This document shows positions 3,140 through 22,801 of a stretch of DNA of 25,007 nucleotides, piece after piece; position 1 is the stretch's first letter; each line of letters starts with the position of its first letter. The stretch is from positions 1-25,007 of the forward strand of contig SVHQ01000009.1 in assembly GCA_015055785.1 (NCBI GenBank), written 5' to 3'. A model generated the notes under the pieces. The model did not search any database and was not told the DNA's origin. It worked only from the letters and a program-made list of their open reading frames with translations. This stretch comes from Clostridiales bacterium. GTDB lineage: Bacteria > Bacillota_A > Clostridia > Christensenellales > Borkfalkiaceae. A program made the translations under genes and the position numbers.

Positions 3140-3563
3140 TATGGATAACTGTGTAAAGAGGGGAAGTTATCAACAAAATTATAAATATATTAATTTATGC
3201 AGAGTATGCGAATAAAGGGTTTTCCACATGTATTGTGCACAAATGTGGATAAAATAAGCTTGTCCACGCGCATTTTTGTAAAAATGTGGAAAACTTTTTA
3301 CCTTGGTTATGTTTTATTTTTAAAAAACCTACGTTTGCGCTGTATATCCACCTAAAAACCCTCTTTTTTTGTGGATAACTTCTCCACAACGGCTTTTGTT
3401 GATAAATAATTTTATCATAATTTTTGTGGATAAACTAATTTTTTCTGTTAAAATGTGGAAAAATTATTGTAAAATAATCGTAAAATTCATTCAAAAAGCA
3501 CTATTTATCCACAAACGTTTGTTCTTTTTTTAAAATGGTAAAAGTTATCCACATTTATACACA
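3140..3563. other. Cluster of DnaA boxes (origin-like region, left)
   Basis: A gene-free region with perfect DnaA boxes (TTATCCACA or its complement) at 3244-3252, 3370-3378, 3425-3433, 3505-3513 and 3545-3553, plus TTATACACA at 3555-3563. One-mismatch boxes occur at 3140, 3167, 3220, 3285, 3380, 3397 and 3454. Boxes occur in both orientations. The region is AT-rich but I found no run of TAG-like trios next to a box, unlike the right cluster at 13.4 kb. It lies between converging genes (gerAC and the cvpA-like gene). It may be an origin module, or a DnaA-titrating site. Dense boxes are seen directly; the function is inferred. Confidence 0.7.
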
Positions 3564-3604
3564 CAAGAATATTTGTATAATTTAAATTTTTGGGCATAAA
3601 AATA

Positions 3605-11410: not shown

Positions 11411-12523
11411 TTACGCTTGCTGGCTGGTACGAACGGGTAATACAAGGTATTGACAGCTCTTATCTTCCACGTTCTCGATTGTGAAAGGGGATACAGACGT
11501 ATTAAACGACAACACAACGATTTCCTCTTCCAAAGCTTTCAAAGCGTCCAAAAGATATTTCCCGTTCATGGCAATTTTTAATTCCTTGCCTTCCATATCC
11601 GTTGCCGACACCGTTTCTTCTACTTTACCCATATCCGAATTGGCGTTGATGATAATTTTATCATGCTTTACGTCCAACAAAATAAGGTTGTTTTTATCGC
11701 CGCGGATAAGTACGGAAGCACGCTCTACACTGTCGATAAGCTCGCTTCTCTTCACTTGCACCTTTGTCGTGAAATCTACAGGGTAAATATTTTCCTTACG
11801 CACAAATTCCCCCGAATACAATCTCGAATTAATCACGGTATCTTCCACAGCCACCGACAATAAATTCTTACTTGCGTAAATTTTTAACGTGTTTTCATTG
11901 CCAAGCATACGGGAGATTTCCGTTAAAGTACGTGCGGGGCATACGATTTTCATTTCACCGCTGCCGTCTAAAACGTCACAATACGAACAAGCCATTCTAA
12001 AACCGTCCAATGCCGTCGCTGTCAATTGATTGTCTTTCGTTTCCATAAGACAACCTTTCAAAATAGGTCTGCTTTCGTCGGTCGCGCAGCAGAACACCAC
12101 TTTGGATATCAACGTTTTTAAATCAGCTTCCTTAATTTCGAAATATTCTCCAACGTCCTGCGTGTTGTCCCCAAAAACAGGGAAGTCAGTAGCGGATAAC
12201 GCTTGCATATACGATTCACTATCTGCATATTTAATGGAAATACCCTTTTCATCGGAAGCAATCACCACTTCAAAAGCCGCGATTTTCCCCACAAAATCGG
12301 CAAACGTTTTACCGTTCACACACAGCTCGCCTTCTTCTAAAATCTCCGCTTTAATCTTCTTTTCAATGGAAATTTCACCGTCGTATGCTTTCAACGTAAG
12401 CCCGTCGTTTTTAGCTTGTAATTTAATGCATTCCAAAACAGGCGTAATCGTCTTTGCCGCGCAGGCTTTGCTTACCACGAGCGCCGCATCCGATAAAATC
12501 ATTCCGTCACATACAAATTTCAT
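11411..12523 (-). CDS. dnaN: DNA polymerase III beta subunit (sliding clamp)
   Basis: 370 residues, normal length, three clamp domains. Hallmarks are DESRPILKGCLMET and ATALDGFRMA in the middle domain and the C-terminal YLVLPVRTS, the segment that contributes to the protein-binding pocket. The clamp encircles DNA and tethers polymerase III. AGGAG lies 8 bases upstream of the ATG. Unusually there is no dnaA next to it: the gene upstream is a SLOG-type protein and the next gene downstream is rpmH on the same strand. It has a strong promoter of its own. Confidence 0.96.
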   Translation of the reverse strand: MKFVCDGMILSDAALVVSKACAAKTITPVLECIKLQAKNDGLTLKAYDGEISIEKKIKAEILEEGELCVNGKTFADFVGKIAAFEVVIASDEKGISIKYADSESYMQALSATDFPVFGDNTQDVGEYFEIKEADLKTLISKVVFCCATDESRPILKGCLMETKDNQLTATALDGFRMACSYCDVLDGSGEMKIVCPARTLTEISRMLGNENTLKIYASKNLLSVAVEDTVINSRLYSGEFVRKENIYPVDFTTKVQVKRSELIDSVERASVLIRGDKNNLILLDVKHDKIIINANSDMGKVEETVSATDMEGKELKIAMNGKYLLDALKALEEEIVVLSFNTSVSPFTIENVEDKSCQYLVLPVRTSQQA

Positions 12524-12654: not shown

Positions 12655-13158
12655 TTACAATTTTACGTTCACGTAAATAATTTCTTTTTCGGGGTATTTT
12701 TTCTGGCAGTATTTGACGGTGTACGCCGCGCCGCCTTTTTCTTTTTTACAGTAGGCTATGAGTGCGTCTGCGTGCTCTACCATATACTGATTTCTCATCA
12801 ACATACAACCGCGATGATAGTTTTCTGATAATAAAATTTTTTCGTCCGCGCGCTGTAATATGGAAACGTAACGGGCTTTGTCTGTATCGGAATAGCTCTT
12901 TTCTTGATTATAACAGGGAATACAGGCTATCAAGCGGATTTGTGGATAGCTTTTCTTTAATGAAAGAGTCGCTTCGGCTGCCAATAAATCAAAACCCTGC
13001 GCCATACCGTTATAAAAATCTACCACGCCTTTTTTAGCGTAGTTTTCTATCGTTTCCCACAAGAGTTTGGGAGAGAAGTCTTCTCCTATGTTTCTATGAC
13101 CCGTAAAAGCACAGCTTTTAATGGGTGTGTTGTTTGTTTTTATTCTTAATTGTTCCAT
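12655..13158 (-). CDS. DUF1273/YpsA-like SLOG superfamily protein
   Basis: 167 residues. The fold signature is CAFTGHR (16-22), NGMAQGFDLLAAE (50-62) and, near the end, CMLMRNQYMVEHADALIAYCKKEKGGAAYTVKYC. This is the Rossmann-like SLOG superfamily, which includes YpsA, GpsB-linked proteins of Firmicutes and the DprA/LOG families; members may bind nucleotides, but no activity can be assigned here. The start was set at 13158 since the longer frame runs through a clear promoter (-35 at 13201-13206, -10 at 13177-13182). This leaves a leader of only about 15 bases and no clear ribosome binding site. It stands between the origin region and dnaN. Confidence 0.75.
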   Translation of the reverse strand: MEQLRIKTNNTPIKSCAFTGHRNIGEDFSPKLLWETIENYAKKGVVDFYNGMAQGFDLLAAEATLSLKKSYPQIRLIACIPCYNQEKSYSDTDKARYVSILQRADEKILLSENYHRGCMLMRNQYMVEHADALIAYCKKEKGGAAYTVKYCQKKYPEKEIIYVNVKL

Positions 13159-13176
13159 CTTTTTGCACCGCTTATT

Positions 13177-13206
13177 ATTATACCATAACACTCCCCACCT
13201 TGTCAA
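13177..13206 (-). promoter_or_regulatory. Sigma-A promoter for the SLOG-like gene
   Basis: Minus strand: -35 TTGACA (13201-13206), spacer 18, -10 TATAAT (13177-13182) preceded by TGG. The consensus elements are perfect. Transcription would start near 13170, giving a very short leader. Confidence 0.85.
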
Positions 13207-13310
13207 CCAACGTTCCGTTCGATTTTGTCTTTCTATCCCAGCGTTCCGCTGGACTTTGTCTTTCTATCTTTCTATATAGCTTAAAAAGAAGATTGGTGAG
13301 TGAAGAGCAA
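13207..13310 (+). repeat. Dispersed structured repeat, truncated copy then full copy
   Basis: A shortened copy (CCAACGTTCCGTTCG, then TTTTGTCTTTCTATC) from 13207, directly followed at 13238 by a full copy beginning CCAGCG-TTC-CGCTGG, then ACTTTGTCTTTCTATC and TTTCTATATAGCTTA. It abuts the -35 box of the SLOG-like gene. Matches the copies after rsmG and before lon almost base for base in the first 45 positions. Confidence 0.75.
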
Positions 13311-13340: not shown

Positions 13341-13374
13341 AAAAAAAAAATAGCTTGCCGTTTTGGCGGCAGGC
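13341..13374 (-). terminator. Minus-strand terminator next to the origin candidate
   Basis: On the minus strand GCCTGCCG and CGGCAAGC form a stem with one mismatch and a CCAAAA loop, followed by a run of ten T. No minus-strand gene lies between it and rsmG, so it may end an unannotated transcript from the origin or an antisense transcript. Confidence 0.65.
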
Positions 13375-13380
13375 TTACTC

Positions 13381-13760
13381 CTGATATTATTATATTAAAA
13401 TAAATATTAATAGTAGTATTAGTAGGGTGCTGTGGAAATGTGGACAAGCCGAATTTATGCCCTTGAATGTCTTTAAAAATCTGCTTTTTTATATTTAATT
13501 TTACTGTGGACAACCCCACCTTTTATTGTGGAGAAAATTGTGGAAAATTTGTGGAATTGTGGAAAAATAAACTGTATATACAAACAGTGTAATGTATAAA
13601 AATACAATAAAAAGTGAATAAAAATAAGTTTATTATGGGTTATCCACTATAGTTATCCACAATGTGGAGAAGGGGAAAATCGTGGGGTGGATAAGCTGTT
13701 AAAGCCATACAAGACAAGGGATAAAGCGGATAAAATTTTTCTTTCGTTGTGGAAAACTTT
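13381..13760. other. Candidate replication origin oriC (DnaA-trios plus DnaA-box cluster)
   Basis: In order: AT-rich stretch (13381-13410); a trio run TAATAGTAGTATTAGTAG (13408-13425); GC-rich GGTGC; then DnaA boxes TGTGGAAAT (13431) and TGTGGACAA (13439). More boxes follow: 13505, 13527, 13539, 13558, 13640, a perfect TTATCCACA at 13653, 13663, 13686 and 13748. This order (AT-rich, trios, GC-rich, boxes) is the basal unwinding system described for Bacillus subtilis. Transcription diverges on either side (SLOG/dnaN leftward, rsmG rightward). The motif order is seen directly; origin function is inferred. Confidence 0.8.
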
Positions 13761-13771
13761 TTTTAAAAGGA

Positions 13772-13800
13772 TTGCCTTTTATGAAAAATCGTGGTATAAT
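13772..13800 (+). promoter_or_regulatory. Candidate promoter overlapping the start of rsmG
   Basis: -35 TTGCCT (13772-13777), spacer 17, -10 TATAAT (13795-13800) preceded by TGG. If used, transcription starts near 13807, just before the ATG at 13811, giving an almost leaderless message. It lies inside the 5' end of the longer reading frame. Confidence 0.5.
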
Positions 13801-14506
13801 AAAAAACGCTATGGAAATAAGAGAGATTCAAACAATTTTAGAAACAGAGATTTTAGGGGAAAAACGCGAGAAATTTGAGAAATTTCGTGCGCTTTTGCTG
13901 GAATATAACCAAAAATACAATCTCACGACGATCTTGGAAGAAAAGGATATGTTATACAAACATTTCTTGGACAGCGCGGCTGGCGTGGATTTATTTTCAC
14001 AAAATGCACGCATTGCAGAGATTGGTTCGGGGGCAGGTTTTCCCTCGATTGTCTTAAAAATCCTGCGGCCGGACTTGCAATTGGATCTTTTTGAGAGTGT
14101 TGGAAAAAAATGTGAATTCTTAAAGGCTGTTGTGGATAACTTTGATTTTAAGAATATGCATATTTATAACATTCGCGCGGAAGATGCGGCGAAGGACGTG
14201 AAATTTAGGGAAAAGTATGATTTTGCAACGGCGAGGGCTGTAGCAAGAATGAATACTTTGACGGAATACTGTTTGCCGTTCGTAAAGGTTGGAGGAAAGT
14301 TTATAGCGTATAAGAGCGGTGACGTGAGCGAGATTTTGGAAGCGGAATCGGCGTATAAGACGCTTGGCGGTAAGAAATCAAGCGTGTATGCGTATGCTTT
14401 GCCTGAGGGGTATGGCGAGCGTGTGTTGGCGGTGATTGAGAAAATTAAGCCAACGCCTGCAAAATATCCACGCGGACAGGGTAAGGAACGTAAAAACCCC
14501 CTCTAA
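13781..14506 (+). CDS. rsmG: 16S rRNA (guanine-N7) methyltransferase RsmG (GidB)
   Basis: 241 residues from ATG 13781, which has AAAGGA 9 bases upstream. The alternative ATG 13811 (231 residues) follows a promoter-like TATAAT and would be nearly leaderless. The S-adenosylmethionine motif IAEIGSGAGFP is at 78-88; the N-terminal NQKYNLT and the later FATARAVARMNTLTEYCLPFVKVGG and C-terminal KYPRGQGKERKNPL are characteristic. RsmG methylates a guanosine in the 530 loop of 16S rRNA. In Bacillus it lies beside mnmG near the origin; here mnmE and mnmG are absent and it starts the rightward replichore. Confidence 0.93.
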   Translation: MKNRGIIKNAMEIREIQTILETEILGEKREKFEKFRALLLEYNQKYNLTTILEEKDMLYKHFLDSAAGVDLFSQNARIAEIGSGAGFPSIVLKILRPDLQLDLFESVGKKCEFLKAVVDNFDFKNMHIYNIRAEDAAKDVKFREKYDFATARAVARMNTLTEYCLPFVKVGGKFIAYKSGDVSEILEAESAYKTLGGKKSSVYAYALPEGYGERVLAVIEKIKPTPAKYPRGQGKERKNPL

Positions 14507-14680
14507 CCAGCGTTCCGCTGGACCATGACTTTCTATTTTTCTAAATAGCTTGGAAAGAGGCTTGGTTGGTGGTGGGCTTTCGTAAATAAACGAACATTTT
14601 CCATCTGCGTTCCGCTGGACCATGACTTTCTATCTTTCTAAATAGCTTGGAAAGAGGTTTGATAGTTTTTTTTAGTAAAG
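14507..14680 (+). repeat. Dispersed structured repeat, tandem pair after rsmG
   Basis: First copy from 14507 (immediately after the stop codon): CCAGCG-TTC-CGCTGG, ACCATGACTTTCTATT, TTTCTAAATAGCTTGGAAAG, then GGTTGGTGGTGGGCTTTCG. Second copy from 14601 with the same body but a damaged hairpin. In both, CTTTC pairs with GAAAG around an inner CTATTTTTCTAAATAG-type hairpin; in the first copy the inner stem is perfect through a compensatory T/A pair. Suggests a conserved RNA or DNA structure. Confidence 0.75.
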
Positions 14681-19085: not shown

Positions 19086-19153
19086 CGTAACCCACCAAGC
19101 CCCTATCTAAGCTATATAGAAAGATAGAAAGACAAAGTCCAGCGGAACGCTGG
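19086..19153 (-). repeat. Dispersed structured repeat, copy before lon
   Basis: On the minus strand: CCAGCG-TTC-CGCTGG, ACTTTGTCTTTCTATC, TTTCTATATAGCTTAGATAG, GGGGCTTGGTGGG. It ends 34 bases before the lon start and faces away from lon. Here CTATC pairs with GATAG around CTATATAG. The near-identity to the copy at 13238 suggests recent spread. Confidence 0.75.
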
Positions 19154-22619: not shown

Positions 22620-22801
22620 CAGTCTGCTACCGACCAAGCATTTATCCAAGCAATTTAGAAAGATAAAAAGATGAAACACCCTAAGGGTGCGGAACACAGA
22701 TAAAATAAAAAGTCCTCTTATTTACGAAAGCCCATCACCGATCAAGCACTTATCTAAGCTATATAGAAAGATGGAAAGACGAGGTCCAGCGGAACGCTGG
22801 T
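22620..22801 (-). repeat. Dispersed structured repeat, tandem pair after the 22.8 kb gene
   Basis: On the minus strand, the first copy (22713-22801) starts right at the stop codon of the gene at 22802 with CCAGCG-TTC-CGCTGG, then the body and the tail GGTGATGGGCTTTCGTAAATAA. The second (22620-22689) has a different hairpin, CACCC-TTA-GGGTG (palindromic), then TTTATCTTTCTAAATTGC and GCTTGGTCGGTAGCAGAC. The tandem arrangement and stop-codon placement match those after rsmG and gerAC. Confidence 0.72.

What the first reader, a model, noticed from the sequence alone, without database searches (positions are those of the whole stretch)
13381..13760. Clear basal unwinding element (DnaA-trios) at a candidate oriC without dnaA next to it
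Seen directly: AT-rich stretch, TAATAGTAGTATTAGTAG, a GC-rich spacer, then adjacent DnaA boxes. The order matches the Bacillus subtilis basal unwinding system. In Bacillus the trios lie between dnaA and dnaN; here dnaA is absent and rsmG and a SLOG-like gene flank the element. Unwinding would be to the left of the boxes.
Basis: partly seen in the sequence, partly recalled or inferred. Interest (0 to 1): 0.7.

Follow-up and report, generated by a model that had tools for sequence, protein, structure and literature searches.

The report
Gut-bacterium replication origin lacking dnaA
This stretch is very probably where an uncultured gut Clostridia bacterium starts copying its chromosome; it has the standard DNA-opening signals, but in the relatives checked the gene for the starter protein DnaA, usually next door in this group, lies elsewhere.

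Summary
At 13371-13447 lie an AT-rich stretch, six DnaA-trios, a 5-nt GC-rich spacer and two tandem DnaA boxes; more boxes follow up to rsmG. The stronger box is 13 bp from the trios, the commonest published spacing. Shuffles almost never give this.

Relatives identify it as the origin. The motif lies beside dnaN and/or rsmG in 11 of 14 close relatives and 24 of 27 further genomes of the GTDB family. In 6 of 7 contigs read at length, the cumulative GC-skew minimum falls within about 100 bp of it. dnaA is never within 4 kb of dnaN in 96 family genomes; 55 of 93 genomes from the order keep it there. dnaA sits in a recF-dnaA-mnmG module without a box cluster.

It may titrate DnaA or be half of a split bipartite origin.

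Verdict: a basal-unwinding-system (BUS) oriC uncoupled from dnaA across a Clostridia family. The mechanism is known; I found no description of this arrangement in Bacillota (open-licence library). No bench data.

The parts
13371..13404 (+). AT-rich stretch, presumed DNA unwinding element
   Evidence: 79% A+T against 60% for the window; position relative to trios as in published BUS origins
13408..13425 (+). six DnaA-trios, read 3'-GAT GAT TAT GAT GAT AAT-5' from the boxes
   Evidence: sequence; conserved in relatives
13426..13430 (+). GC-rich spacer GGTGC
   Evidence: sequence
13431..13447 (-). tandem co-oriented DnaA boxes, weak (13431-13439) and strong (13439-13447), 8-bp step
13505..13756 (.). 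ten further DnaA boxes of the origin, one exact (13653-13661)
13772..14506 (+). rsmG (gidB), right flank of the origin
   Evidence: PF02527, E 3.1e-47
12655..13206 (-). YpsA-like SLOG gene, left flank
   Evidence: PF06908, E 1e-17
11411..12523 (-). dnaN (DNA polymerase III beta clamp)
   Evidence: PF00712, PF02767, PF02768
3140..3600 (.). second DnaA-box cluster, 17 boxes in 400 bp, 6 exact, between the 3' ends of a gerC-like and a cvpA-like gene
   Evidence: found in 12 of 14 close-clade loci where cvpA is visible

Best explanation
The element is the chromosomal origin (oriC) of a gut Clostridia bacterium and works as a basal unwinding system. ATP-DnaA binds the tandem boxes at 13431-13447, helped by the boxes up to 13756, extends as an oligomer leftwards along the trio strand (13425 to 13408), captures trio bases and opens the AT-rich stretch at 13371-13404, where helicases are loaded and forks leave in both directions. 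DnaA comes from a distant recF-dnaA-mnmG locus, so dnaA is no longer tied to the origin by position. The second cluster near 3.4 kb most likely tunes initiation by binding DnaA. Shown by computation: motif, conservation, skew switch, distance of dnaA in relatives, conserved trio-contacting residues. Inferred: DnaA binding, unwinding, helicase loading, role of the second cluster.
For: Motif and chance. Strict trio pattern beside rsmG in 11 of 14 close relatives, interrupted in 2, not visible in 1. Loose pattern in the dnaN/rsmG region in 19 of 20 family genomes and 5 of 7 others. Cumulative GC-skew minimum within about 100 bp in 6 of 7 contigs, 133 bp in the window. Eight exact parS sites, all 5.7-8.4 kb from the motif. 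dnaA within 4 kb of dnaN in 0 of 96 family genomes. No box cluster beside dnaA in 14 of 14. DnaA of G011 keeps the five residues Asn187, Ile190, Ile193, Arg202, Glu228.
Against: No marker-frequency or bench data. Own genome not held. G058 skew minimum is 19 kb from the motif, and 11 of 20 single 20-kb stretches have their minimum elsewhere. Three family genomes (G060, G027, G017) lack the pattern. The window has no parS with at most 2 mismatches. The TA[AGT] trio pattern was found at the dnaA-dnaN gap in only 2 of 20 stretches from the wider order, so the descent of these trios from a canonical origin is not shown. DnaA Asn196, which contacts the third trio base, reads Lys in G011.
Confidence: 0.92

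Rival explanations
1. Split bipartite origin: the second box cluster is the counterpart of oriC1 and acts together with the trio site (oriC2) by DnaA-mediated looping, across 7-13 kb instead of across dnaA.
For: Its box count (8-17 per 400 bp) resembles oriC1 of clostridia (9-19) while the origin cluster resembles oriC2 (5-9) (PMC7561715 passages). Distance kept at 7.4-13.3 kb in 11 of 11. Not at a promoter: flanking genes converge.
Against: Absent in L002 and L014 and not seen in the stretches of more distant family members that have the motif. Published bipartite origins span about 2 kb (PMC4285127 passages).
Confidence: 0.22
2. The boxes are a DnaA-controlled promoter of rsmG or the SLOG gene, not an origin.
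For: The region lies between divergent genes; DnaA also acts as a transcription factor (PMC8203912, abstract in listing).
Against: Trios with fixed spacing, skew minimum at the motif, nearby parS. A promoter role in addition is not excluded.
Confidence: 0.03
3. The true origin lies beside dnaA elsewhere; this is a relic or secondary site.
For: dnaA adjacency is common in the order (55 of 93) and in published Firmicutes (PMC7561715 passages).
Against: No box cluster beside dnaA in 14 of 14 nor within about 9 kb in 7 of 7; 0 exact boxes in 400 bp upstream in 14 of 14. No lasting change of skew sign at dnaA in G107, G011, G012, G010, G089, G041, although the 4-kb bin at dnaA is close to zero or slightly reversed in G011 and G010.
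Confidence: 0.02

Closest known systems
Basal unwinding system of Bacillus subtilis incC/oriC2 (PMC6669920, PMC8287927, PMC10721633; passages read)
   Same: Trios, spacer and tandem co-oriented boxes in the same order; stronger box distal to the trios at 10-13 bp; unwinding away from the boxes towards dnaN
   Different: rsmG stands where dnaA would be; dnaA is elsewhere; a SLOG gene lies between trios and dnaN in the close clade
Clostridioides difficile bipartite origin (PMC7561715; passages read)
   Same: Trio run almost identical on the complementary strand; trio-bearing part carries fewer boxes, the other part more
   Different: There both parts flank dnaA; here the second cluster is 7-13 kb away and dnaA is absent
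Cyanobacterial origin near dnaN with dnaA elsewhere, e.g. Synechococcus elongatus (PMC7198777; passages read); E. coli oriC is also distal to dnaA (PMC13220808; passages read)
   Same: Origin separated from dnaA; in S. elongatus next to dnaN
   Different: Other phyla; here within Bacillota, whose origin context is described as conserved with dnaA
oriC-proximal DnaA-box clusters of B. subtilis (Okumura 2012, not held; cited through PMC13220808)
   Same: Box clusters outside the origin that can bind DnaA
   Different: Here one dense cluster between convergent genes, 7-13 kb from the origin; function untested

Membership tests
Basal unwinding system (BUS) | At least three trios with central adenine | tested here: met
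   Eleven NAN triplets in a row, four of them GAT-type; rule from PMC8287927
Basal unwinding system (BUS) | DnaA box with at most 2 mismatches within 16 bp, second box at most 4 | tested here: met
   1 mismatch at 13 bp, 2 mismatches at 5 bp
Basal unwinding system (BUS) | DnaA residues that capture trio bases | tested here: met
   Five residues named in PMC10721633 identical in DnaA of relative G011; the window's own DnaA not seen
Basal unwinding system (BUS) | DnaA-dependent strand separation needing boxes and trios | not testable with these tools
   Needs purified protein
Chromosomal oriC | Minimum of cumulative GC skew | tested here: met
   6 of 7 long contigs of relatives; window 133 bp off
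Chromosomal oriC | Highest copy number in growing cells | not testable with these tools
   No reads
Canonical Firmicutes origin (rnpA-rpmH-dnaA-dnaN) | dnaA adjacent to the origin | tested here: not met
   No dnaA beside it in window or 14 relatives; 0 of 96 family genomes
Bipartite origin (oriC1 + oriC2) | Two box clusters that act together, one with the unwinding site | tested here: inconclusive
   Second cluster present but 7-13 kb away and missing in 2 of 14 close-clade loci; joint action untested
Regulatory DnaA-box cluster outside oriC | Dense boxes outside the origin whose loss changes initiation timing | tested here: inconclusive
   Density met; effect on timing not testable

The most novel reading that the evidence does not exclude
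A family of Clostridia initiates replication from a dnaA-less trio site between dnaN and rsmG and, in the close clade, couples it to a strong DnaA-binding partner about 10 kb away, while dnaA has moved off and its promoter region has no exact DnaA box. The usual Bacillota links (dnaA dosage at the origin, box-based autoregulation, short bipartite looping) would then be replaced by a long-range control element.
Probability: 0.22. Interest if true: 0.72.

Novelty: new variant of a known kind. Interest (0 to 1): 0.52.

Why it matters
dnaA is the default landmark for finding bacterial origins (Ori-Finder 2022, PMC10225481 passages), and the Firmicutes context is described as conserved rnpA-rpmH-dnaA-dnaN (PMC7561715 passages). 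In this family that rule would misplace the origin, by about 290 kb in G107, and could bias coverage-based growth estimates. It is also a natural experiment: the unwinding site stayed with dnaN and rsmG while the initiator gene left, so whether dnaA position and autoregulation matter for timing becomes testable.

Tried and rejected
Own-genome skew and dnaA search: not possible, no genome held. RNA families: nothing at gathering threshold; one weak threonine-leader match at E 0.73, far below its cut-off. tRNA genes: none found. parS in the window: none with at most 2 mismatches, two with 3. Claim that the 8-bp box step is new: dropped, because the B. subtilis step did not appear in the passages read. 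Descent from a canonical dnaA-dnaN origin: left as inference, since the trio pattern was found at the dnaA-dnaN gap in only 2 of 20 order stretches (L100, L114). Print searches for a dnaA-less Bacillota origin listed none on this lineage; the library is open-licence only and listings were read, not all papers.

Rows dropped before counts; weak DnaA-like hits (E 8e-15 or worse), one G194 fragment and minor second dnaN hits were not entered, so G032 and G100 (family) and G123, G158, G195 (order) have no dnaA there; the list was cut at its weak end. Distances are between domain hits; 31 loci with a recognisable trio; left out were L005, L010, L014, L125, L133 and the seven of L039-L046 discussed below. 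The 20 family genomes were picked by me across the list, some because dnaA and dnaN share a contig; they are not a random sample. For G107, G058, G089, G041, G011:C108 and G012:C4 only part of the contig was fetched, so skew was summed across gaps or short of the end.

Full report
What is there. On the minus strand, leftwards from the element, lie a YpsA-like SLOG gene, dnaN, rpmH (named from its translation only), rnpA, yidD, yidC and jag; on its right rsmG starts on the plus strand. The gap between the SLOG and rsmG reading frames is about 565 bases. In it lie an AT-rich stretch (13371-13404), the trio run TAATAGTAGTATTAGTAG (13408-13425), GGTGC, and two co-oriented boxes, TGTGGAAAT (13431-13439) and TGTGGACAA (13439-13447); further boxes run to 13756.

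Chance. The arrangement occurs once in the window, in 1 of 400 shuffles of the window and in 3 of 5000 shuffles of the 380-base region; in 1.02 Mb of four relatives it occurs three times, each time at the predicted origin, and misses the interrupted copy of the fourth. It meets the published BUS rules, and the 13-bp distance of the stronger box is the commonest published spacer (PMC8287927, outline and passages). The C. difficile trio quoted in PMC7561715 (passages) reads, on the other strand, almost the same run followed by GGTG.

Close relatives. A DnaN search of GTDB genome contigs gave 16 loci, 14 at 70-82% identity. The strict trio pattern stands beside rsmG in 11 of the 14; in L010 and L014 the run is interrupted but spacer and tandem boxes are in place; L005 does not reach the gap. 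In L003, L007 and L013 the SLOG-trio-rsmG block is turned round relative to dnaN with its own order intact.

The family. Twenty more genomes of the same GTDB family, picked by me, were read around dnaN. With a looser rule (at least 3 TA[AGT], one TAG, a box with at most 2 mismatches within 16 bp) 19 of 20 have the motif there: 17 between rsmG and dnaN or the SLOG gene, one (L130) in an inverted block, one (L128) where the contig ends before rsmG; G060 has boxes but no trio. The same rule gives 8 hits elsewhere in these 0.38 Mb. In seven further members, taken because dnaA lies 5-27 kb from dnaN, the rule finds it in 5 (L039-L043); G027 (L044) has a run interrupted by one base change and G017 (L046) shows none. 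In 31 aligned members the best box is 12-13 bp from the trio in 21 and 3-5 bp in 10; the best tandem pair has an 8-bp step in 25 of 31.

Is it the origin? Cumulative GC-skew minima against the motif: G107 336,400 / 336,417; G011 23,300 / 23,369; G012 82,900 / 82,831; G010 78,300, next to a box cluster at 77,818-78,217; G089 12,550 / 12,589; G041 178,350 / 178,299. In G058 the minimum is 19 kb off; only 7.6 kb of that contig lies beyond the motif. In the window it is at 13,272. In the 20 single 20-kb stretches it lies within 110 bp in 9, about 650 bp off in 2 and elsewhere in 9. Eight exact parS sites (consensus recalled) were found in 2.41 Mb, partly overlapping stretches; all lie 5.7-8.4 kb from the motif, in 8 of the 20 family genomes; sites with 1-2 mismatches also occur elsewhere.

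Where is dnaA? In 14 of 14 close relatives it is on another contig than dnaN. In the family sample of 101, both genes were found in 96: 0 within 4 kb, 5 at 5.5-11 kb, 10 at 24-289 kb on one contig, 81 on different contigs. In the order sample of 101, both in 93: 55 within 4 kb; five of the other 38 are members of this family. Different contigs alone could be fragmentation; the 15 same-contig cases and the contrast with the order could not. dnaA is flanked by a divergent recF-like gene and by mnmG. No box cluster (5 or more in 400 bp) lies within about 1 kb in 14 of 14, and none of 6 or more within about 9 kb in 7 of 7. The 400 bp upstream hold no exact box; nine weak ones occur over the 14, seven of them the same TTTGCATAA near -140. 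Skew keeps its sign on both sides of dnaA; the bin at the gene is near zero, slightly reversed in G011 and G010.

DnaA. The G011 protein aligns with B. subtilis DnaA of entry 8btg; Asn187, Ile190, Ile193, Arg202 and Glu228, named in PMC10721633 (passages), are identical, Asn196 reads Lys (residues counted by me on the printed alignment).

Ancestry (inference). In L039-L043 the recF-dnaA-mnmG block lies a few kb beyond jag while dnaN-motif-rsmG is already in place. The simplest reading is that dnaA left, rsmG came to stand in its place, and the dnaA block drifted away. The trio pattern is seen at the dnaA-dnaN gap in only 2 of 20 stretches from the order, so descent from a canonical trio site is not shown.

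Second cluster. 3140-3600 has 17 boxes in 400 bp, 6 exact, against at most 6 in 40 shuffles. A gerC-like and a cvpA-like gene converge on it, so no promoter role is evident. It is found in 12 of 14 close-clade loci with cvpA visible, not in L002 and L014, 7.4-13.3 kb from the motif in 11 of 11, on either side (L009, L012 against the window). I favour a DnaA-binding regulatory site like the B. subtilis clusters whose loss causes early initiation (PMC13220808 passages); a split bipartite origin stays open.

Verdict. Known mechanism, unusual arrangement: a BUS-type oriC uncoupled from dnaA in a Clostridia family. Separation from dnaA itself is known in cyanobacteria and E. coli. Function is inferred.

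Noticed in passing
window 3140-3600: Second DnaA-box cluster with stronger boxes than the origin, between two convergent genes; kept 7-13 kb from the origin in close relatives.
   Followed up: partly
window 13241-13272, 14510-14541, 14607-14638, 19119-19150, 22766-22797: Interspersed repeat with a short palindrome (CCAGCGTTCCGCTGG) followed by CTTTCTAT stretches, five copies in non-coding gaps. An exact 13-base core was not found in 175 loci of relatives, though L014 shows a similar element by eye.
   Followed up: partly
L058 6717, L123 4408, L127 16387, L131 14616, L135 15361, L136 4806, L137 3748, L138 19007, L139 530: parS-like sites 5.7-9.7 kb from the origin motif in family members (exact in all but L058, which has one mismatch); none in the window with at most 2 mismatches.
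   Followed up: partly
L111, L112, L113, L115 and genomes G117, G118, G120, G146, G185, G203: Other members of the order also have dnaA displaced or turned relative to dnaN, so such shifts may have happened more than once.
   Followed up: no
L018, L019, L022, L027, L028, L029, L030, about 140 bp upstream of dnaA: A shared weak box-like site TTTGCATAA in 7 of 14 recF-dnaA gaps; could be a remnant autoregulation box or part of a promoter.
   Followed up: no
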